Position numbers and translations under genes: made by a program. Under the pieces are notes generated by a model. That model saw only the letters and a program-made list of their open reading frames with translations. It did no database searches and was not told where the DNA came from. Shown one piece after another: positions 7,653-40,865 of a DNA stretch of 64,000 nucleotides (position 1 is its first letter; every line of letters begins with the position of its first letter). The DNA comes from Sulfuriferula multivorans (lineage in GTDB: Bacteria > Pseudomonadota > Gammaproteobacteria > Burkholderiales > Sulfuriferulaceae), in assembly GCF_003851125.1 (NCBI RefSeq), contig NZ_BGOW01000013.1:58067-122066 (forward strand), given 5' to 3'.

Positions 7653-7953
7653 GACCGGCTTTCCGTGCCAGTTGACCTGGCAGTTGCGTTGGTCGGGCGA
7701 GCCGCGTCACGACCAGGCGCGCGATGATGAACCCGAGCAGGCTCGCCAGCAATCGCTTCCAGTCGCCCCCCGATACAAAATAAAACCCGGACAGAACAAT
7801 GCCGGTGCGCAGCAGCATGCTGCCGAGAAACCACAGTGCCGGTTGTCTGGATGAAACGGCTTTGCGAACCGTCCACCAGAGACCACCGAAAAAAAATCCT
7901 CCGAGCAAAGCGCCTGCAACCAGGGCGAACGCCAGACCCAAGCCTTCATTCAT
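7642..7953 (-). CDS. atpR: N-ATPase accessory membrane protein AtpR
   Basis: A 103-residue protein beginning MNEGLGLAFALVAGALLGGF, with three hydrophobic segments (about 6-25, 40-60, 68-85). The start at ATG 7953 overlaps atpQ by 8 nt. AtpR is found only in N-ATPase operons and has been proposed to help c-ring assembly or interact with the c subunit through conserved charged residues; here Arg30, Lys31 and Arg50 are candidates. The assignment rests on position between atpQ and atpB and on the membrane pattern. Confidence 0.85.
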   Translation of the reverse strand: MNEGLGLAFALVAGALLGGFFFGGLWWTVRKAVSSRQPALWFLGSMLLRTGIVLSGFYFVSGGDWKRLLASLLGFIIARLVVTRLARPTQLPGQLARKAGHAP

Positions 7954-8276
7954 TGTTATTCTCCTCCTGCTCGCGTATTTCCCTGCCTTCCTTGGCCACC
8001 CAGTGCCACGCATTAAAGCAACCGAGACCCAGGCCGATGGCCAGCAGCATGAGTGTCCAGGAATGCCCTCCCGGATAATGCCTGTCCAGCCAGACGCCGA
8101 GTGCCGCGCCGAGCAGCGTGGGCACCGCCACCGACCAGCCAACCAGGCCCATCATGCCCAGACCGGACCAGACAGTCTGCGTGACATGACGTTGCGCCTT
8201 GAGCTTGCGCGCCGCTTTCTCGCCCACCTGATGGCTGAATTCGGTCTCGCCCGCCGCGGATTTCGCTTTCGGCTTT

Positions 8277-8284
<8 letters not shown>
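7946..8284 (-). CDS. atpQ: N-ATPase accessory protein AtpQ (AtpI-like)
   Basis: A 112-residue protein with a charged N-terminus (MSEKPKAKSAAGETEF) and two membrane helices at about 41-64 and 73-95, the AtpI/gene1 pattern. It overlaps atpC (8 nt) and atpR (8 nt). AtpI-like proteins are linked to c-ring assembly and Mg2+ supply in F-type ATPases; AtpQ is the N-type counterpart. Confidence 0.85.
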
Positions 8285-10502
<2,218 letters not shown>

Positions 10503-31264: not shown

Positions 31265-32356
31265 TCACGCGCCAACCGCCACATGGGTCTTCCACTGCTT
31301 CCCATCGATACCCTGGAATACCGCCTGGTAAGTCCCCGGCGCGAGTTTCAACGTCCCCTGATGCGGCAGCGAGATCGTGGCGCGCGCGCCAAGGACGCCG
31401 ACGAAACCATACTGCGTCGGTTTGAAAACCGAATATTTGTATTCGTTGGCAAAACCGGTTTTAGGCAATTCGCTCAGCGCCTTTCCGTCCCAGGTTTCCA
31501 GCGCTTGCCCGTGTTCGTCAACGACGGAGACCTGGATCACGTATGCGCCCTGAGTGTCAGGACCAGCGTCCACGTATGCGGGCAGCGTCAGGACACCGGA
31601 CGAGGAAAGTACCGGCTTGGTTAGTGCAAGGTGATGATGTTTCGGGTTAGTCCGTGCCACCAGCGGGCTGAACACGGCACCGCGCAGATATCCATAAAAA
31701 CCCACGGCAAAGACAATGGCGAGAATGCCGAACAGCTGTGCGAAACGCGTGACCGAAACGACTGGCAGCGGGCCGCTGAATAACCAGGGAAACCAGGAGC
31801 GGCGTGCGAGCCTGGGCCATTTTTTCGCCACCCAGTGATCCAGCGACCACCAGCTACCGCCTCCGGCAATCATGATGCCCAGGCCCATGGCAAAGCTGTT
31901 GGAAGCCATGGTCCATTCGTCGACACAGGTGGAACCCAGCCATCCGAACATCAGCATCAATGAAACCGCCAGACCGACGCTGATCAAGCCGAAAAATCGC
32001 GTCATGAAACCGAAAATCAGCCCCAGGCCGACCAACAACTCGACCAGCGTGAAGATAATGATCGATACATGCAGCAGGGTGGGATGGTGCAACAGGGCGC
32101 TGAGCGCATCGCCGCTACCAAAAATGGCACCGGGTATCGCTTCGTTCATTTTGTGCGCCATGTAGCCGCTTGAACCGGGATCCAGCTTGCCCGTACTATA
32201 GATCAGCCGCCTGGTGGCGCCGGCCCAGTAAACCCAGCCTTGAACCAGTCGCACGCCAAGCATGGCGAGCCCCAGCAGAGTCCAGATGTCAGCATTTGGA
32301 GAGGAAGGAGCCGACACAGGCACGGCTTCCTTGGTTGCAACGGATGAAACAGACAT
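31265..32356 (-). CDS. doxDA: DoxDA-type thiosulfate:quinone oxidoreductase (fused DoxD-DoxA)
   Basis: A 363-residue membrane protein. Residues about 25-185 are a DoxX/DoxD-like four-helix domain (LGLAMLGVRLVQGWVYWAGA, and VGLGLIFGFMTRFFG); a further membrane helix at about 205-225 leads to a periplasmic C-terminal domain (about 235-363) resembling DoxA (PAYVDAGPDTQGAYVIQVSVVD). In Acidianus the two are separate subunits of thiosulfate:quinone oxidoreductase; bacterial fusions are known. Start ATG 32356 has AGGAG 6 nt upstream. Two palindromes lie just upstream. Confidence 0.82.
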   Translation of the reverse strand: MSVSSVATKEAVPVSAPSSPNADIWTLLGLAMLGVRLVQGWVYWAGATRRLIYSTGKLDPGSSGYMAHKMNEAIPGAIFGSGDALSALLHHPTLLHVSIIIFTLVELLVGLGLIFGFMTRFFGLISVGLAVSLMLMFGWLGSTCVDEWTMASNSFAMGLGIMIAGGGSWWSLDHWVAKKWPRLARRSWFPWLFSGPLPVVSVTRFAQLFGILAIVFAVGFYGYLRGAVFSPLVARTNPKHHHLALTKPVLSSSGVLTLPAYVDAGPDTQGAYVIQVSVVDEHGQALETWDGKALSELPKTGFANEYKYSVFKPTQYGFVGVLGARATISLPHQGTLKLAPGTYQAVFQGIDGKQWKTHVAVGA

Positions 32357-32454: not shown

Positions 32455-32487
32455 ACGACACTGTTAATCCTATAAATCGCAATTCAA

Positions 32488-32616
32488 GCCACAGAGATCT
32501 CAGAGGACACGGAGAAGAAGCGGCCTTCGGCGTGATTTGCTTTTCTCCCGATGGGTGAGCCGAAAACAGCAATTAAAGCGTTGCCTTTTCTCTGTGTTCT
32601 CTGTGCCCTCTGTGGC
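32488..32616. repeat. MITE-like element with imperfect terminal inverted repeats
   Basis: A left arm of about 30 nt starting AGCCACAGAG (32488) and a right arm ending CTCTGTGGCT (32616) are inverted copies, about 24 of 30 bases matching, around a 70-nt centre. Purine-rich CACAGAG/CTCTGTG arms of this type are widely dispersed in environmental proteobacterial genomes. It lies in the 408-nt gene-free stretch 32357-32764, which otherwise holds the two doxDA palindromes and the start region of the next operon. Confidence 0.6.
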
Positions 32617-32764
32617 TAACTGATTTTTTCAGGTTCACTGCTCTGCTTGCTGCCACAAATCCGGTTGGCAAACCAGGACGCGCCAACGCACACCCTGCGC
32701 CGCTTCATGGGGCATTTGAGGTAACCTATGCCTTCCGTCCGGATCAGAATTTTCTTAACTCACC

Positions 32765-34222
32765 ATGAACGAAGATAGCCACGGGGCTGCTCCACACTCG
32801 CTTGACCCGTCAGATTGGCAAACACTCCGCGCCCAGGGGCATCGCATGCTCGACGACATGCTGGACTACCTGGAGCACATCCGGGAGCGTCCGGTATGGC
32901 AACCGATTCCGCAGCCAGTGCGCGATCTGTTCCACGAAACGCTCCCCGCGCAACCGGCCGATCTCGCCACGGTGCATGCACACTTCATGCACGATGTGCT
33001 GCCGTATGCCGTGGGCAACGCGCATCCCGGCTTTATGGGCTGGGTGCATGGCGGCGGCACGCCGGTGGGCATGCTGGCGGAAATGCTGGCGGCGGGGCTG
33101 AACGCCAATCTGGGCGGACGCGACCAGATGCCCATCGAGGTGGAACGCCAGATATTGCAGTGGATGCGCGAGCTGTTCGGCTTTCCCGAAAGCGCCAGCG
33201 GCCTGTTTGTGACCGGCACCTCCATGGCCAACCTGATCGGCGTGCTGGTGGCGCGTACCGCAGCGCTGGGCACTGAGGTGCGTCAGAGCGGCGTCGCTGC
33301 CAGCGGCAAGCGCCTCACCGCTTATACTTCCGCCGGGGCTCACGGCTGTATCGCGCAGGCAATGGACCTTGCCGGTCTCGGCATGGACGCCTTGCGCATC
33401 ATCCCGGTGAACGACCAGTACCAGATAGACAGCGCAGCACTCGAACGGGCCATCGCAGCGGATCGCAGCGCCGGTTTCACGCCGTTTTTCATTGCCGCGA
33501 CGGCGGGTACGGTCGATGTTGGCGCCATCGATGATCTCGCCGTGCTGGCAGACATCGCTCAGCGGGAGGCGCTGTGGTTTCATGTCGACGGGGCGTACGG
33601 GGCGCTGGCCATGCTCGCCCCGGATATTGCACCGCGCCTGCGCGGCATCGAGCGTGCCGACTCGATCGCCTTCGATTTTCATAAATGGGGGCAGGTGCCC
33701 TACGATGCCGGATTCATCCTGGTGCGGGACGGTACCCTGCACTACGACACCTTCGCCTCACCTGCGGCCTACCTGCGCCGCGAAGCCTGCGGCATGGCGG
33801 GCGGATCGCCCTGGCCGTGCGATTTCGGGCCGGATCTTTCGCGCGGTTTCAGGGCTCTGAAAACCTGGTTCACCATCAAGGTCTACGGTGCGGAGCAGAT
33901 TGGCCAGGTGATTTCCGGCACCTGCGCGCTGGCCCAGTACATGAAGCAGCGTATCGAGGCCATGCCGATGCTGGAGCTGATGGCGCCGGTGGGACTGAAC
34001 ATCGTCTGTTTCCGTTACCGCAGCGACCATGCCGACACGGTTAATACGCGGCTCGCTGCTGCATTACAGGAATCCGGCATTGCCGCGCCGTCTACCACCA
34101 CCCTCAACGGCCATGTCGCGATTCGCGCAGCGATTGTCAATCACCGCACCGATACCCGCGCCATCGACGCGCTGCTACAAGCAACCCTTGTACTCGGCAA
34201 GGAACTTACCCAGACGCCATGA
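32765..34222 (+). CDS. group II PLP-dependent amino acid decarboxylase
   Basis: A 485-residue fold-type-I PLP enzyme of the aromatic-L-amino-acid decarboxylase family. The PLP lysine is Lys307 in DFHKWGQVPYDAG, the cofactor aspartate is in WFHVDGAYGALAML, and the family motif NAHPGFMGWVHGGGTPVG is near residue 85. The substrate is unknown; the Trp-rich N-terminal motif does not decide it. It is the first of three closely spaced genes (12-nt and 2-nt gaps) that have no recognised pathway, implying that the amine it makes is used by the ATP-grasp protein. Confidence 0.92.
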   Translation: MNEDSHGAAPHSLDPSDWQTLRAQGHRMLDDMLDYLEHIRERPVWQPIPQPVRDLFHETLPAQPADLATVHAHFMHDVLPYAVGNAHPGFMGWVHGGGTPVGMLAEMLAAGLNANLGGRDQMPIEVERQILQWMRELFGFPESASGLFVTGTSMANLIGVLVARTAALGTEVRQSGVAASGKRLTAYTSAGAHGCIAQAMDLAGLGMDALRIIPVNDQYQIDSAALERAIAADRSAGFTPFFIAATAGTVDVGAIDDLAVLADIAQREALWFHVDGAYGALAMLAPDIAPRLRGIERADSIAFDFHKWGQVPYDAGFILVRDGTLHYDTFASPAAYLRREACGMAGGSPWPCDFGPDLSRGFRALKTWFTIKVYGAEQIGQVISGTCALAQYMKQRIEAMPMLELMAPVGLNIVCFRYRSDHADTVNTRLAAALQESGIAAPSTTTLNGHVAIRAAIVNHRTDTRAIDALLQATLVLGKELTQTP

Positions 34223-34234
34223 CTCAGGATCAGA

Positions 34235-35473
34235 ATGAATAACGAATCTCCGCAACCATCCCCTAATCATGGCGAAAGCTGCGAACCGCTCATTGGTCTG
34301 GCCACTTTAATGCAAATGGCTTTTTCCGGCGCTGATCTGGGTCCGCTGGGCACGCGTTTGCTGAAGCGCGCAGAAACGCATCCGCACGATGCGAATACCT
34401 TGCTGGACCTGTCGACGATCCTGCAACTCAAAGGCAATCGCGCCGCCGCGCTCGCCGTACAGTCTCAGGCGCTGGAGATGCAACAGCTGTATCACATGCC
34501 GGCAGCGAAGGATGCGACAGCTATCCGTCTGCTTGCCATCATGGGGCCGGGCGATTTGATGGCCAATACGCCGCTGGAATTTCTGCTGGAAGGCTCCGAT
34601 ATCGCGCTCGATATGCTGTATGTGGCGCCGCACCTGCCCTTGCCTGCAGCGCTGCCGGAACACGACGTGGCGTTCGTCGCCGTCGGTGAATCCGATCAGA
34701 ATCGCCCCTTGCTGCAATATGTTGCCGAGCTGATCCAGGACTGGCCGCGTCCGCTGCTGAATACGCCTGATCGCATCGCCGGCGTATCGCGTGACGGCGC
34801 CTGCGCGCTGCTGGCCTCGGCGCCAGGGGTCGTCATTCCAGCTACGGTACGCATCGACCGGCAAACCCTGGAACAGGTCGGACGCGGGCAACTGGCGCTG
34901 GCCGGCATCCTTGAAGACGGCGATTTCCCGATTATTGTGCGTCCGGTTGATTCGCATGCCGGGCAAGGGCTGGACAAGCTCGATGCGCCGGCCGCGATCG
35001 GCGATTATCTGCAGTCACAACCGATGAACACGTTTTATGTGTCCCGCTTTGTCGACTACCGCGGGCCGGATGGTTTATTCAGAAAATCACGCATTATCCT
35101 CATCCACGGCCGTCCGTACGTTTGCCATATGGCGATATCCGAGCACTGGATGATCCATTACCTGAATGCCGGCATGACTGACAGTGCAGAAAAACGCGCC
35201 GAGGAAGCGCGCTTCATGACCCGCTTCGACGACGACTTCGCAAGCCGGCATGCCACTGCTTTCCGCGCCATCCACGAACACATGGGACTGGACTATCTCG
35301 GCATCGACTGCGGGGAAACACCAACGGGCGAATTGCTGATTTTTGAAGTGGACAGCAATATGATTGTTCATGCGATGGATCCAGTCGATCTGTTTCCCTA
35401 TAAACAGCCACAGATGCATAAAGTGTTCGATGCCTTTCGCGCGATGTTGATCGATGCAAGCTCTCAGCCCTGA
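34235..35473 (+). CDS. TPR-containing ATP-grasp ligase-like protein
   Basis: A 412-residue protein. Residues about 20-90 form one or two TPR-like helix pairs (RAETHPHDANTLLDLSTILQ). The C-terminal half is an ATP-grasp fold: FPIIVRPVDSHAGQGL at about 230, a substrate loop HMAISEHWMIHYLNAG, and a Mg2+-binding FEVDSNMIVHAMDP near residue 375. The first ATP-binding Lys is replaced by Arg (IVRP). ATP-grasp enzymes join a carboxylate to an amine through acyl-phosphate. Product unknown. AGGA lies 6 nt before the start. Confidence 0.8.
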   Translation: MNNESPQPSPNHGESCEPLIGLATLMQMAFSGADLGPLGTRLLKRAETHPHDANTLLDLSTILQLKGNRAAALAVQSQALEMQQLYHMPAAKDATAIRLLAIMGPGDLMANTPLEFLLEGSDIALDMLYVAPHLPLPAALPEHDVAFVAVGESDQNRPLLQYVAELIQDWPRPLLNTPDRIAGVSRDGACALLASAPGVVIPATVRIDRQTLEQVGRGQLALAGILEDGDFPIIVRPVDSHAGQGLDKLDAPAAIGDYLQSQPMNTFYVSRFVDYRGPDGLFRKSRIILIHGRPYVCHMAISEHWMIHYLNAGMTDSAEKRAEEARFMTRFDDDFASRHATAFRAIHEHMGLDYLGIDCGETPTGELLIFEVDSNMIVHAMDPVDLFPYKQPQMHKVFDAFRAMLIDASSQP

Positions 35474-35475
35474 TT

Positions 35476-37113
35476 TTGACAGTGAATAATCGCCATGACC
35501 GGCTCCCGTTTCCCTCTACCCAACAGCTTCTGGTAGAAGGCGGCGATGCCCGTATCATCCTGGCGCCCGGCCATGCTTTAAACAAATACGGTTGCGCGCC
35601 GCAGCCCGATCCGGATCTGATGGGTTTTGGATCCGCCACGGCATCGACCATCTCCGAGATGGGATTTGGCGCAGCGAACGAACTGCGTAGCCGTCTCCTC
35701 CGCACTGCCGATAAGCAGCCGCCGGCCACCCTCTATGCCCGCGAACTGAATCGGCTGCGCCGGGAACTGATCCAGTTGTGTGGCGCAGGCGATCTGCCCG
35801 GCCTCGACATTGTTTTCGCCGCATCAGGCACGGACTTGCACTTGATTGCGGCTCAGCTCATCAGCAGCGGCGCCTCTGCATCCACGCTTGCGCTGATGCT
35901 GAACCCGGAAGAAACCGGTAGCGGGGTACCGGCAGCGCTGGCTGGCCGCCACTTCAGCGTTCATACTGCACTGGGAGATTCAGTCAGCGCAGGGACGACC
36001 ATCACCGGCACCGGTGCCATTGAAGTGGTGGCTGTGCCGATTCGTCAAACCGACGGCATTCCGCGTCCGGCAACAGCAGTCGATGCAGAGATCGAAGCAC
36101 TGGTGACCAGTGCGATCGAGCAGGGACGACGCGTGCTGCTGATCCTCACCGATGTTTCCAAAACCGGTCTGATCGCGCCGAGTGTTGCCTGCATTTCCGC
36201 ACTGCAGCGCCGCTGGCCGGATAAGCTCGATATCCTGGTCGACGCATGCCAGTTCCGCCTCGCACCTGCAACCCTGCGCGCCTATCTGGCGCATGGCTTC
36301 ATGGTAGCCTTGACCGGCTCAAAATTTCTGAGCGGACCGACTTTCTCCGGCGCGCTGCTTATCCCGTCTGCAGCCGCACAACGTTTGCGTAGTCGTCCGT
36401 TGCCACGTGCCTTGCAGGCTTATTCCGCCGCAGCGGACTGGCCGGATGATTGGGATAGCGCCGGTATCCTCGATCACAGCGCAAGCAATTTTGGATTGTT
36501 ACTGCGTTGGGAAGCCGCCCTGGCTGAATTAAGGATGTTTCGCACCATACCGGAAGCAGCGGTCAAACGCTTCCTGCTGTCCTTTGCAGAGGCTGTTCAG
36601 CATCGGCTGAGCCGAGATCCGAACTTTGAGCTCATCCCTGTTCCGCTAATCGATCGCCGCCCCCTGATTGAGGCGGCAAGCTGGGATCATATCCCGACGA
36701 TTTTTCCGTTCCTGCTTCATCGCCCTGCTAGCGCGGCTCGCAGCGGGCCGTTAAACCGGGAAGAAACCGCCCTGGTCTATCGGCGCCTGCAAGACAAGCT
36801 CAGCGACCATCCCGATCTGAATAGCAACGACGCCACGGCGGCATTACGCTATCAACTGGGGCAACCCGTAGCATTCGGCCAGCGTAATGGCGTGCCGGTA
36901 AGCGCGTTGCGCCTGTGCGCCAGCGCGCGCCTGGTGGTCGAAGCGACAAGCGGGTGGCCGGGACAACAGCGCCGTGGTCATTCAACGGGCGTTGGCGGCA
37001 CTGGACAAAGCGGCCCTGCTGGTGCGCTGCCTGCCGGCCTAGATAAACATCGATTTATCGGGTTAAACCCTGAAATGGCGAAGATTTTAGCCACTAATCG
37101 CCTGATTGGTTAA
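35476..37113 (+). CDS. fold-type-I PLP-dependent enzyme of unknown function, 3' end frameshifted
   Basis: The main fold is a PLP transferase: Lys283 in ALTGSKFLSGPTFSGALLIP is the likely cofactor lysine and VDACQFRL carries the aspartate. Start is TTG 35476 or GTG 35482. The reading frame as given runs to 37113, but the last 50 residues are low-complexity and Gly-rich. Removing one G from the GGG at 36952-36954 restores a normal helical end, GGRDNSAVVIQRALAALDKA and on to a TAG at 37040-37042 (about 521 residues). Either the gene is mutated or the read has a one-base error. It completes a three-gene cluster with the decarboxylase and ATP-grasp genes. Confidence 0.75.
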   Translation: MTVNNRHDRLPFPSTQQLLVEGGDARIILAPGHALNKYGCAPQPDPDLMGFGSATASTISEMGFGAANELRSRLLRTADKQPPATLYARELNRLRRELIQLCGAGDLPGLDIVFAASGTDLHLIAAQLISSGASASTLALMLNPEETGSGVPAALAGRHFSVHTALGDSVSAGTTITGTGAIEVVAVPIRQTDGIPRPATAVDAEIEALVTSAIEQGRRVLLILTDVSKTGLIAPSVACISALQRRWPDKLDILVDACQFRLAPATLRAYLAHGFMVALTGSKFLSGPTFSGALLIPSAAAQRLRSRPLPRALQAYSAAADWPDDWDSAGILDHSASNFGLLLRWEAALAELRMFRTIPEAAVKRFLLSFAEAVQHRLSRDPNFELIPVPLIDRRPLIEAASWDHIPTIFPFLLHRPASAARSGPLNREETALVYRRLQDKLSDHPDLNSNDATAALRYQLGQPVAFGQRNGVPVSALRLCASARLVVEATSGWPGQQRRGHSTGVGGTGQSGPAGALPAGLDKHRFIGLNPEMAKILATNRLIG

Positions 37114-37174: not shown

Positions 37175-38728
37175 ATGAAAGACTCCTCCGCACCGCCACA
37201 GAATGCCCCCGATATTGCCCGGGAAGCCTTCCGTCGCCTGGCGTTGCAACGTACAGCGCCGACTCCGGATGCTTATCGCACTGCCTACAATGAAATCGCC
37301 GGCGCCTCGGCAAACCCTGATGCGGAAGCCGTTCTCACCGATTTTGCCAGGAATCTGGTGCGCGCACACGGCGAGGCAGCTGAATTCGGCACCCGCTTTA
37401 ATCGCGCCCTGGAGACCCGTAATTGGCAGGATTATGGGGAAGGTCTCTCACAACTCATAGAAAAACGCATCAAGAAGTCTCCTCCGATCGCCAGCGCGCC
37501 GGTGTATTTACCCGCTGACGACAATCAACAAGTCCGGCTCCTACGTGAGTTACTCACGCGCACCCTGACTTTGGGAGTCGCTTCCCTTCTCGCCGGCACG
37601 CCGGAACTGGCTGCCGAATCCGAATCTCTGGCCAGTGCAATAAAAGAAGCGCAAACCGAAGAGGCACTCAACGATGCCGCAAGCCGTCTGAAACAATTGT
37701 GTTTCCGTATCGAACTGCGCAGCGGCGACGTCGCCGAACAACAGGAATTGCTGCTGCGTCTGTTCCGGCTCCTGCTCGATAACGTGCGCGATCTGCTGGA
37801 AGAAGACAGCTGGATGCGCGGCCAGGTCGATGTGGTGAACAAGCTCATCGCCGGTCCGATCAATCACCATGCGCTGGAGGACGCCACGCGCAGCCTCAAG
37901 GAAGTCATTTATAAACAGGGCACGCTGAAGAGCAGTCTGGCTGAAGCCAAGATTACAGTCAGAAACATGGTCACCATTTTCATTGATCGCTTGAATGCGG
38001 TCGCCGCCAGCACCGGCGATTACCATGAAAAGATGGATACCTATTCACAAAAAATCGCCCAGGCCGGCAGCATCAACGAACTCAATTCAGTATTGGACGA
38101 TGTCATGCGCGATACGCGCACGGTACAGACAGACGCACTGAATTCGCGCGATGAAATGCTGGCGGCGCGCCAGAAGGCACTGGATGCCGAGGCAAAAATC
38201 CACGAACTGGAATCCCAACTCGCGCAAATGAGCGAACTCGCGCGCGAAGACCAGTTGACCGGCAGCCTCAACCGGCGCGGACTGGATGACGTGTTCGAAC
38301 GCGAGCAGGCGCGCGCCAAACGTCGCAATTCCCCGCTTTGCGTCGCACTCTTGGATATGGATGATTTCAAGCAGCTCAATGATGCCCATGGTCATGTCGC
38401 GGGCGACGAGGCGTTAATACATGTAGTGAGAATCGTCAAAGAGACACTGCGCACCATGGATGTCATCGGCCGCTTTGGCGGCGAGGAGTTTCTGGTCGTA
38501 CTGCCAGACACTTCCATCGAGGATGCCATGCTGGTCGTGGCGCGCCTGAAAAAAGAACTCACCAAGCGCATCTTTATCCACAACAACCAGCGCCTGCTGA
38601 TCACTTTCAGCGCCGGTGTCGCATTAAGCGCCCCCGATGAAGATCCAAAAGCGGTGTTAAAGCGTGCCGACGCAGCACTGTATCAAGCCAAGAAAGCCGG
38701 CAAGAATCGGGCTGTTGCCGCAGATTAG
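37175..38728 (+). CDS. diguanylate cyclase (GGDEF) with long N-terminal helical sensor
   Basis: A 517-residue cytosolic protein. Residues about 1-330 are mostly helical, with no membrane segment, and end in a coiled coil. The GGDEF domain (about 355-515) has the active motif GRFGGEEF and an inhibitory RxxD site (RTMD) five residues before it, so it is likely an active, feedback-inhibited c-di-GMP synthase. It sits directly before fliC and may set c-di-GMP for flagellar control through the nearby PilZ protein (inference). Confidence 0.92.
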   Translation: MKDSSAPPQNAPDIAREAFRRLALQRTAPTPDAYRTAYNEIAGASANPDAEAVLTDFARNLVRAHGEAAEFGTRFNRALETRNWQDYGEGLSQLIEKRIKKSPPIASAPVYLPADDNQQVRLLRELLTRTLTLGVASLLAGTPELAAESESLASAIKEAQTEEALNDAASRLKQLCFRIELRSGDVAEQQELLLRLFRLLLDNVRDLLEEDSWMRGQVDVVNKLIAGPINHHALEDATRSLKEVIYKQGTLKSSLAEAKITVRNMVTIFIDRLNAVAASTGDYHEKMDTYSQKIAQAGSINELNSVLDDVMRDTRTVQTDALNSRDEMLAARQKALDAEAKIHELESQLAQMSELAREDQLTGSLNRRGLDDVFEREQARAKRRNSPLCVALLDMDDFKQLNDAHGHVAGDEALIHVVRIVKETLRTMDVIGRFGGEEFLVVLPDTSIEDAMLVVARLKKELTKRIFIHNNQRLLITFSAGVALSAPDEDPKAVLKRADAALYQAKKAGKNRAVAAD

Positions 38729-38975: not shown

Positions 38976-40388
38976 ATGGCTTCATATATCAACACCAACA
39001 TCGCTTCACTGAATGCTCAGCGCAACCTGACCACTTCACAATCTTCGCTGGCTACTTCCTTGCAGCGCCTGTCTTCGGGCTTGCGCATCAACAGCGCCAA
39101 GGACGACGCTGCCGGTCTCGCCATCAGCCAACGGATGACCTCGCAGATTAACGGCTCCAACCAGGCGGCCCGCAACGCCAACGACGGCATTTCCCTGGCC
39201 CAGACCGCTGAAGGCGACTTGTCCCAGATCACTAATAACCTGCAGCGCATGCGTGATCTGTCCGTGCAATCAGCCAACGCGACCAACTCCACTTCAGATC
39301 GTGCTGCGCTGAATAGCGAATTTCAGCAACTGTCTGCTGAAAATGATCGTATTGCGCAAACCTCTTCTTTCAACGGCGTGAAATTGCTGAATGGCTCCTT
39401 TACCGCCCAGAATTTCCAGGTGGGTGCGAACAACTCCACCAACGACCAGATTACCATCGCATCGATTTCGAGTGCCCGTACCTCTGCGCTGGGTGCTCAA
39501 ACTGCAACTTCAGGTGTCACCACGACTGCACTGGCAGCCGGCGATTTGACCCTGAATGGCACATCGATAGGTGCATCTACTGCCACTACAGTCGCCGGCC
39601 AGACCGCCGCCAGCGCTTTCTCGATTGCAGCTGCGATTAATGCCGCTTCGTCCGGCGTGAATGCCACGGCAAATGCCACCTCTGTTACTGGTATTGCTGC
39701 TACTGCATTTACCGCAGTTACTGATAATATTACGGCAGGCGATCTTAAGATTAATGGTGTAAGTGTCGGCGCTATTACTGCGGGTGGCAGTGCGGCAGCG
39801 CAAGGTACAGCCGTAGCTGCAGCCATTAATTTGGTCTCAAGCACTTCAGGAGTAACCGCAACGGCGGATGCTGCTGGTTTAGTTACCCTGAACGCAGCTG
39901 ATGGTCGTGAAATAACAGTCGCGCAAACAGGAACAGCGACTACTGCGCGTACTGGATTAACGGCGGCAACAACACAGAGCACCATAACGCTTAGTTCTTC
40001 TGCAAGTATCGTTGTCGGCGGTGCTCATCCAGCATACGCGGGTTTAACAGCGGGTACGCTGGCAACTACCACATTGGCAGTAAGCAGCGTCGATTTGACT
40101 ACTGCGGCCAGCTCCCTCACTGCCTTGACCGCAATTGATGGCGCCATTGCTACCGTGAACAGTTCACGCGCTTCCTTAGGTGCTTATCAGAATCGTTTTG
40201 CTTCCGCAGTAAGCAGCTTGCAGACTTCTTCAGAAAATCTGTCCGCTGCACGCAGCCGTATTCAGGACACCGACTTTGCTGCAGAAACCGCCAACCTGAC
40301 CCGCGGCCAGATCCTGCAACAAGCTGGTACGGCAATGCTGGCACAAGCCAACGCGCTGCCGAACGGCGTGCTGGCACTGTTGCGTTAA
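38976..40388 (+). CDS. fliC: flagellin
   Basis: A 470-residue filament protein. The N-terminal D0/D1 region ([18 protein letters not shown], then [20 protein letters not shown]) and the C-terminal region ([19 protein letters not shown] to the LLR end) are canonical. The central variable part holds two related modules, [13 protein letters not shown] and [13 protein letters not shown], of the flagellin_IN type. Strong AAGGAG lies 8 nt before the ATG. It is exported by the type III system encoded downstream, with FliS as chaperone. Confidence 0.97.
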
Positions 40389-40427: not shown

Positions 40428-40454
40428 ATGGAAGGCGGGAGACCGCTTTCCATC
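40428..40454 (+). terminator. second, stronger hairpin between fliC and flaG
   Basis: GATGGAAGGCGG (40428-40439) pairs with CCGCTTTCCATC (40443-40454) over a 3-nt loop, 12 bp with one G-U pair. It ends 24 nt before the flaG start. Confidence 0.6.
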
Positions 40455-40478
40455 TTCCCACTTAAAATGGAAATAGAC

Positions 40479-40865
40479 ATGGACATCAGTCAAATATCGA
40501 GTACTACGCAGGTGACCATCACACCACCGGCAAGCCGGCAAGCGGCATCAGCTCAGACTGGCGCAACATCAGCTATTCCCGCTGTACCAAACAACGCCGC
40601 CTCTGTCGCAATACAGTCGCCAACCAAAGCAGACGCTGTCGATGCAGTCGAATTGAAACGCTCAGTCGACGCGATTAACAAATTTCTTAAACCAGTCGCC
40701 AGCAATATTGAATTCAGTATTGATCAGGATAGCGGTAGAACCCTGGTCAAGGTTGTGGATACAGAGACCAATACCGTCATACGGCAAACGCCTTCCAGGG
40801 AAGTGCTCGCCATTGCCAAGGAACTCGACAAGTTGCAAGGCCTCCTGATCCGGGAAAAGGCCTGA
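40479..40865 (+). CDS. flaG: FlaG family protein
   Basis: A 128-residue protein. The N-terminal half is low-complexity (Ala/Thr/Pro-rich); the C-terminal half from about residue 60 is the FlaG domain (INKFLKPVASNIEFSIDQD, then VKVVDTETNTVIRQTPSREVL). FlaG affects filament length in polar flagellates. Start ATG 40479 is preferred over in-frame ATG 40467 because GGA lies upstream of it; neither site is strong. Confidence 0.88.
   Translation: MDISQISSTTQVTITPPASRQAASAQTGATSAIPAVPNNAASVAIQSPTKADAVDAVELKRSVDAINKFLKPVASNIEFSIDQDSGRTLVKVVDTETNTVIRQTPSREVLAIAKELDKLQGLLIREKA

What the first reader, a model, noticed from the sequence alone, without database searches (positions are those of the whole stretch)
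32765..37113. Unassigned three-gene cluster: PLP decarboxylase, TPR/ATP-grasp, second PLP enzyme
Gaps of 12 and 2 nt show one operon. A group II amino acid decarboxylase makes an amine, an ATP-grasp fold with Mg2+-binding ExDxN could ligate it, and a fold-type-I PLP enzyme of no recognised family could transform it further. I know of no named pathway with this set. Its position just before flagellar genes could mean flagellin or surface modification, or coincidence.
Basis: partly seen in the sequence, partly recalled or inferred. Interest (0 to 1): 0.7.

Follow-up and report, generated by a model that had tools for sequence, protein, structure and literature searches.

The report
Flagellum-linked amine-tagging gene operon
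Three adjacent genes that recur in the same order in bacteria of several phyla, mostly bacteria carrying flagellar genes, encode a decarboxylase-family protein, an ATP-grasp-fold protein and an aminotransferase-fold protein, and are predicted to make an amine and attach it to a carboxyl group on a flagellar component, which would be a new chemical modification of the flagellum.

Summary
In detail: three genes, gaps of 12 and 2 nt, all on the + strand. Gene 1 is a group II PLP decarboxylase-family protein. Gene 2 is a RimK/LysX-fold ATP-grasp protein with a TPR-like N-terminus. Gene 3 matches no Pfam or NCBIfam model, but an orthologue folds as a class-V-aminotransferase-like PLP protein. The window's gene 3 carries one extra base near its 3' end.

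The set is conserved: 62 of 80 loci have all three genes in this order. Genes 1-2 occur fused (Methylobacter), also as one decarboxylase-TPR-ATP-grasp chain (Acidobacteria); 2-3 occur fused.

The flagellar position is probably not coincidence. Flagellar genes lie within 6.5 kb in 24 of 42 well-covered loci, in several arrangements. Of 18 genomes whose locus shows no flagellar neighbour, 17 encode FlhA. In three acidobacterial loci a sigma-28-like site precedes gene 1; that pattern precedes fliM and fliD in two such genomes.

Best model: an amine made by gene 1 is ligated by gene 2 onto a carboxylate of a flagellar protein; gene 3 tailors substrate or product. Chemistry and target are inferred. 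Seven literature searches listed no paper on this set. Flagellar linkage is well supported; the exact modification is not.

The parts
32765..34222 (+). Gene 1 (P1): group II PLP-dependent decarboxylase-family protein, 485 aa; Lys307 in FDFHKW, Asp275 in FHVDGAYG
   Evidence: PF00282 3.7e-69; 38 distinct PDB sequences at 28.7-218.9 bits, incl. tryptophan, DOPA and tyrosine decarboxylases; 73 of 80 loci carry it
34235..35473 (+). Gene 2 (P2): short TPR-like helical N-terminus plus RimK/LysX-fold ATP-grasp domain, 412 aa
35476..37113 (+). Gene 3 (P3): fold-type-I class-V-aminotransferase-like PLP protein; Asp256 (DACQFR) and Lys283 (TGSKF); 3' end out of frame relative to relatives
32487..32617 (.). 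35-nt imperfect inverted repeat (arms 32487-32521 and 32583-32617) between doxDA and gene 1, possibly a repeat element or terminator
37175..38728 (+). GGDEF diguanylate cyclase gene, 61 nt after gene 3; its family recurs near the cluster in other loci
   Evidence: PF00990 1.8e-40; family F11 in 10 loci
38976..40388 (+). Flagellin, first gene of the flagellar cluster that continues downstream
   Evidence: PF00669/PF00700; further flagellar-like ORFs (named by eye)
40428..40865 (+). FlaG
   Evidence: PF03646 1.1e-22

Best explanation
The three genes form a conserved operon linked to flagellar genes that is predicted to modify a flagellar component: gene 1 would decarboxylate an amino acid to an amine, and gene 2, a RimK/LysX-fold ATP-grasp protein with a TPR-like N-terminus, would likely ligate that amine to a carboxyl group of a flagellar protein. 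Steps: (1) gene 1 and gene 2 are the core pair, and related pairs occur as a single decarboxylase-TPR-ATP-grasp chain (shown); (2) the amine of step 1 is the ligase's substrate (inferred from fusion and operon order); (3) the TPR part holds a protein acceptor, as TPR parts of protein-modifying enzymes do (inferred; recalled general knowledge); (4) the acceptor is flagellin or another filament or hook protein (inferred from gene context); (5) gene 3, an optional PLP protein, supplies or tailors the amine or the attached group, sometimes together with a methyltransferase (fusion shown, role inferred).
For: Conserved set: 62 of 80 genome loci have all three genes in the same order; 73 have gene 1, 80 gene 2, 65 gene 3. 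Fusions: 1+2 in a Methylobacter MAG (L020), 2+3 in a Sterolibacterium MAG (L040); decarboxylase-TPR-ATP-grasp chains of 976-1020 aa in 4 of 5 acidobacterial regions fetched; gene 3 + methyltransferase in 4 of 120 listed homologues, e.g. Sulfuricella. Flagellar context: 24 of 42 loci with at least 6 kb on both sides have a flagellar gene within 6.5 kb, in different arrangements: FlgN/FlgA, FliF-FliG, FliS-FliD-FlaG-FliC, FlaG alone. 17 of 18 genomes whose held locus shows no such neighbour encode FlhA. Co-occurrence with FlhA: 8 of 8 against 155 of 276, 19 of 20 against 43 of 61, 13 of 14 against 129 of 250; leaving out the centre genomes, chosen for carrying the cluster, 7 of 7, 18 of 19 and 12 of 13, hypergeometric p 0.016, 0.0033, 0.0019 without correction for kinship. 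Sigma-28-like sites precede gene 1 in L024, L055 and L058, and the pattern also precedes fliM and fliD in two such genomes; reversed control 0. Ligase fold closest to protein- or carrier-modifying RimK, LysX, ArgX. Longer TPR-ATP-grasp paralogues sit just upstream of flhB-flhA in L127.
Confidence: 0.45

Rival explanations
1. The operon makes a free small molecule (an amide of an amine, dipeptide-like) that is secreted or acts as a signal in the motile state, rather than modifying a protein.
Against: Closest folds are RimK, LysX and ArgX, and TPR arrays are expanded in paralogues and fusions; no transporter ORF lies inside the three-gene stretch.
Confidence: 0.25
2. The cluster decorates a flagellar glycan (for example amidating a sugar acid) instead of the protein itself, comparable to the Shewanella sfm operon, which has an ATP-grasp member and is needed for a carbohydrate-type flagellin modification.
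For: Shewanella sfmABCDE includes a 412-aa ATP-grasp protein whose loss shifts flagellin mass (PMC3765264, passages read); some gene 3 forms are fused to a methyltransferase, and sfm also has one; 5 of 20 gene 2-positive relatives (G011, G013, G014, G050, G053) have a strong NeuB match, 4.5e-39 or better.
Against: No Maf-type transferase (PF01973) match in any of the 20 gene 2-positive relatives; the own genome has only a 2.7e-11 NeuB hit over profile 59-239, which I read as a related synthase (recalled); no glycosyltransferase among the three genes.
Confidence: 0.15
3. Carrier-protein biosynthesis: the ATP-grasp protein loads an amino acid on a protein's acidic residue and the two PLP proteins then work on the bound residue, as in LysW-based lysine/arginine synthesis.
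For: LysX and ArgX are among the best fold matches; two PLP proteins share the operon.
Against: No small carrier-protein ORF fits in gaps of 12, 2 and 61 nt; flagellar linkage is unexplained. The rest of the genome was not searched for a carrier.
Confidence: 0.1
4. Ordinary amino-acid metabolism that merely sits near motility genes by chance or shared ancestry.
For: Automatic names are generic (aromatic-L-amino-acid decarboxylase, aspartate aminotransferase family, RimK family); p-values are not corrected for phylogeny.
Against: Several different flagellar arrangements across lineages, FlhA in 17 of 18 genomes without a flagellar neighbour in held DNA and sigma-28-like sites in Acidobacteria.
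Confidence: 0.05

Closest known systems
RimK (adds glutamate to ribosomal protein S6) and LysX/ArgX (load LysW)
   Different: 12-19% identity in those rows; extra TPR-like N-terminus; paired or fused with a decarboxylase; NCBIfam rimK_fam score 19.9 against a cut-off of 143.4.
Shewanella oneidensis sfmABCDE flagellin-modification operon
   Same: A cytoplasmic operon with an ATP-grasp protein of 412 aa and a methyltransferase that alters flagellin mass (PMC3765264, passages read).
   Different: sfm has a NeuB-domain protein, a TPP enzyme and a predicted reductase; this operon has two PLP proteins and no NeuB. Gene 2 was not compared with SfmE itself.
Flagellin glycosylation/modification islands of Enterobacteriaceae
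   Same: Accessory genes inserted beside flagellin genes, with aminotransferases and methyltransferases.
   Different: The words ATP-grasp and decarboxylase occur 0 times in that survey's main text (PMC4875605, term passages only); no glycosyltransferase among the three genes here.
Group II PLP decarboxylases (R. gnavus tryptophan decarboxylase 4obu, P. putida DOPA decarboxylase 7xin, DfoJ)
   Same: Same family, PLP lysine and aspartate kept.
   Different: Own conserved loop GSPWPCDFGPDLSRGFRALK (70 sequences); well below the NCBIfam equivalog cut-offs.
Class-V aminotransferase fold (NifS, AGXT, PhnW)
   Different: 9-17% identity in those rows; no Pfam hit at E<=1, no PDB sequence hit at E<=1; 519 residues against mostly 350-390.

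Membership tests
Group II PLP decarboxylase (PF00282) | Score over Pfam gathering cut-off across the whole domain | tested here: met
   233.7 bits against 27, profile 1-375 of 375
Group II PLP decarboxylase (PF00282) | Schiff-base lysine and PLP aspartate | tested here: met
   Lys307 and Asp275 in window numbering, aligned with solved decarboxylases; the roles are recalled
Group II PLP decarboxylase (PF00282) | Catalytic-loop tyrosine | tested here: inconclusive
   Proline in SPWPCDF aligns with Tyr of tyrosine decarboxylase; DfoJ lacks the Tyr too
Group II PLP decarboxylase (PF00282) | Amine-forming activity on an amino acid | not testable with these tools
   needs enzyme assay
RimK/LysX ATP-grasp ligases | ATP-grasp fold of this branch | tested here: met
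RimK/LysX ATP-grasp ligases | NCBIfam rimK_fam (TIGR00768) cut-off | tested here: not met
   19.9 bits against 143.4: works like, not filed as RimK family
RimK/LysX ATP-grasp ligases | Acidic metal-binding pair E-x-[ND] | tested here: met
   E371 and D373 in 34 of 34 sequences; that these bind metal is recalled
Class-V aminotransferase (PF00266) | Pfam model hit | tested here: not met
   no family at E<=1
Class-V aminotransferase (PF00266) | Fold-type-I class-V fold with PLP Lys and Asp | tested here: met
Nonulosonate flagellin glycosylation | Maf transferase PF01973 in the genome | tested here: not met
   0 of 20 gene 2-positive relatives, own genome included
Nonulosonate flagellin glycosylation | NeuB synthase in the genome | tested here: inconclusive
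   own genome: one hit, 44.0 bits, over Pfam's cut-off of 22.1 but only profile 59-239 at 2.7e-11, against 4.5e-39 to 3.3e-97 for the strong matches, which 5 of 20 gene 2-positive relatives have
LysW-type carrier biosynthesis | Small carrier-protein gene in the cluster | tested here: not met
   gaps of 12, 2 and 61 nt; elsewhere in the genome not searched
Flagellar gene set | Occurs with flagellar genes in genomes | tested here: met
   FlhA in 17 of 18, 8 of 8, 19 of 20, 13 of 14
Flagellar gene set | Flagellar sigma-28 promoter | tested here: inconclusive
   like sites in acidobacterial loci L024, L055, L058; not in the window

The most novel reading that the evidence does not exclude
A flagellum-dedicated amine-tagging system: a decarboxylase makes an amine that a TPR-guided, RimK-like ligase couples as an amide to acidic residues or the C-terminus of flagellin or another filament protein, neutralising charge on the filament; it occurs as a three-gene operon in Proteobacteria and as a one-chain enzyme in Acidobacteria.
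Probability: 0.3. Interest if true: 0.8.

Novelty: new variant of a known kind. Interest (0 to 1): 0.62.

Why it matters
Flagellin modification is known mainly as glycosylation and lysine methylation (recalled). A conserved enzyme set without a glycosyltransferase, tied to flagellar genes in several phyla, would be another chemistry for the filament surface, with an enzyme that conjugates amines to proteins. It also gives generic, sometimes misleadingly named database entries (aromatic amino acid decarboxylase, RimK family, even cytochrome d oxidase) a testable role.

Tried and rejected
Named pathway: Pfam, NCBIfam and PADLOC scans gave no system. Literature: seven full-text searches (three of them returned no paper) listed none that describes this gene set; I saw listings and abstract starts, and passages of two papers only. 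The amidoligase survey cited by the Shewanella paper (Iyer 2009) is not held, so prior mention there cannot be excluded. Nonulosonate glycosylation: no Maf match, NeuB unclear. Sigma-28/sigma-54 sites in proteobacterial loci: not above shuffles; a sigma-28-like pattern has 0 matches in the whole window, so it is uninformative there. Sigma-70 scan: 1 site found against 2.9 expected. Sequence hits in PDB for genes 2 and 3 at E<=1: none.

Counting choices: the 26 'flagellar' families were named by reading representatives; ten were checked with Pfam, the rest are by eye. The 18 genomes are 18 of the 45 loci without flagellar genes in held DNA; 15 have at least 6 kb on both sides, three (L045, L055, L058) less. 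Class search: 16 of 276 matched; I counted the 8 with at least 40% identity over most of gene 2 and dropped 8 weaker ones, of which 5 have FlhA. Relatives: 21 of 61 matched; I dropped G009 (partial match, 64% complete genome, no FlhA). Acidobacterial class: all 14 matches counted, 12 of them distant or fused. The first p-values included the centre genomes; one search leaves them out.

Full report
Setting. The window lies in a 3.6-Mb genome. Its closest named relatives in the hit lists are Sulfuriferula (gene 1 93% to a Sulfuriferula sp.; genes 2 and 3 84% and 79% to S. plumbiphila), so the host is likely a Sulfuriferula-like betaproteobacterium (inferred). The finding sits directly before a flagellar cluster that begins with flagellin and FlaG and continues with flagellar and chemotaxis-like ORFs named by eye.

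The observation. The three ORFs, strands and gaps (12 and 2 nt) are as described. Gene 1 is a full-length PF00282 member. Gene 2 is only weakly seen by HMMs, but its model (pLDDT 89) shows a short helical N-terminus, TPR-like by a sub-threshold Pfam hit, and an ATP-grasp domain closest to RimK, LysX and ArgX. Gene 3 is invisible to Pfam, NCBIfam and PDB sequence search at E<=1; the model of its relative P0001 (pLDDT 90) is a class-V-aminotransferase-like fold-type-I protein with the expected Asp and Lys in 40 of 40 sequences. The 'N' of ExDxN is not conserved (10 of 34), and gene 3's last ~50 residues in the window are out of frame with relatives because of one extra base near 36950; whether this is a mutation or an assembly error cannot be told.

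Is the set real? A scan of one genome per species with a gene 2 alignment found 249 relatives, of which the best 80 loci were kept. In tblastn, 80 carry gene 2, 73 gene 1, 65 gene 3; 62 carry all three and all 62 have them in the order 1-2-3. Some misses are contig ends. Loci come from Beta-, Gamma- and Deltaproteobacteria, Acidobacteria and a Riflebacteria MAG (record titles). Gene 2 is present by the choice of query; gene 1 is its usual partner and gene 3 is missing more often. Fusions point the same way: gene 1+2 (L020), gene 2+3 (L040), gene 3+methyltransferase in 4 of 120 listed homologues, and in Acidobacteria chains of decarboxylase (62-67% identical to gene 1), TPRs and an ATP-grasp part (27-35% to gene 2) in 4 of 5 regions fetched.

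Is the flagellar position coincidence? Of 42 loci with at least 6 kb on both sides, 24 have a flagellar gene within 6.5 kb; over all 80 loci 35 have one in the DNA held. No random-position control was computed. The arrangements differ: between FlgN and FlgA in Gallionella-type loci, beside FliF-FliG, beside FliS-FliD-FlaG-FliC, or next to FlaG alone, which speaks against one inherited accident. One database protein carries a later part of FlaG in frame before gene 1 (P0350), either a fusion or a read-through start. Of the 45 loci without flagellar genes in held DNA I tested 18 genomes: 17 encode FlhA. Drawn genomes agree: 8 of 8 gene 2 carriers have FlhA against 155 of 276 in the class, 19 of 20 against 43 of 61 among relatives, 13 of 14 against 129 of 250 in the acidobacterial class. 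Each set includes its centre genome, which was chosen because it carries the cluster; without it the counts are 7 of 7, 18 of 19 and 12 of 13, with hypergeometric p 0.016, 0.0033 and 0.0019. These overstate the evidence because species are related. Exceptions are G015 (77% complete), G353, G594 and the dropped G009 (64% complete).

Regulation. Upstream of gene 1 most of 68 loci score like shuffles for sigma-28 and sigma-54 sites. Three acidobacterial loci stand out with TGAAGTTT-N12-GCCGATAG-like sites at the same place in otherwise diverged DNA. A genome search with TNAAGTTTN{11,13}GMCGATA in four such genomes gave 12 hits and 0 for the reversed control; two are the gene 1 sites of L024 and L055 (that of L058 differs by one base from the pattern), and others precede FliM, FliD, an MCP-like protein and a PilZ protein, while several precede unrelated or unclear genes. 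In those genomes the pair therefore probably belongs to the flagellar regulon although it lies away from flagellar genes.

How it likely works. The operon order and the single-chain form tie the decarboxylase to the ligase. The ligase's nearest folds are enzymes that put amino acids on proteins (RimK on S6, LysX/ArgX on LysW; recalled), and its TPR-like part and the larger TPR arrays of its paralogues, two of which lie just upstream of flhB-flhA in L127 (neighbours named by eye), point to a protein acceptor. The simplest model is that an amine from gene 1 becomes an amide on a flagellar protein, with gene 3 and sometimes a methyltransferase tailoring it. Shown: genes, predicted folds, fusions, order, flagellar linkage. 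Inferred: amine formation, ligation, acceptor, role of gene 3. A caution is that the loop tyrosine of tyrosine decarboxylase is a proline here, though DfoJ lacks it too.

Comparison. Shewanella's sfm operon also places a 412-aa ATP-grasp protein in flagellin modification; its loss shifts flagellin mass, slightly less than loss of the other genes (PMC3765264, passages). But sfm has NeuB and no PLP enzyme was named in the passages read. No Maf match is found in any of the 20 gene 2-positive relatives. NeuB is unclear: the own genome has a hit over Pfam's cut-off but short and weak (2.7e-11), and 5 of 20 gene 2-positive relatives have strong matches. The Enterobacteriaceae survey mentions neither ATP-grasp nor decarboxylase in its main text (PMC4875605, term search). 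None of seven literature searches listed a paper on this set; the Iyer 2009 amidoligase survey could not be read.

Verdict. Real, conserved, undescribed in what I could search, and flagellum-linked (about 0.8). That it tags a flagellar protein with an amine is the best single mechanism (about 0.45); a free metabolite or a glycan decoration remain open.

Noticed in passing
window 36945-36955: One extra base in gene 3 relative to two close relatives puts its C-terminal ~50 residues out of frame; mutation or assembly error.
   Followed up: partly
window 31265-32356 (-): Fused DoxD-DoxA thiosulfate:quinone oxidoreductase-like protein just upstream of the operon, on the other strand (PF04173, PF07680).
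   Followed up: no
window 32487-32617: 35-nt imperfect inverted repeat with CACAGAG-type units between doxDA and gene 1.
   Followed up: no
L127:4052-6547 and 7721-9349; L129:2191-4680; L130:5306-7879: A wider family of TPR-array proteins, most with an N-terminal SEC-C-like motif, ending in a gene 2-like ATP-grasp domain; in L127 two lie just upstream of flhB-flhA.
   Followed up: partly
L153:6892-9837, L154:9276-12257, L156:7115-10042, L157:5866-8925: One-chain decarboxylase-TPR-ATP-grasp proteins of 976-1020 aa in the acidobacterial class.
   Followed up: partly
P0350: Database protein with a later part of FlaG in frame before gene 1; fusion or read-through start.
   Followed up: partly
P0246, P0254, P0281, P0336: Several gene 1 orthologues are named cytochrome d ubiquinol oxidase subunit I in databases, probably a propagated misannotation.
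   Followed up: no
L012:11274-13280, L033:11212-13227: A divergent ~670-aa version of gene 3 with extra length, about 30% identical, in loci with fliF; in L033 followed by a free-standing methyltransferase.
   Followed up: partly
L052: Record titled Klebsiella pneumoniae MAG but carrying a gene 2 orthologue otherwise seen in environmental genomes; possibly mislabelled, and the one genome of 18 without FlhA.
   Followed up: no
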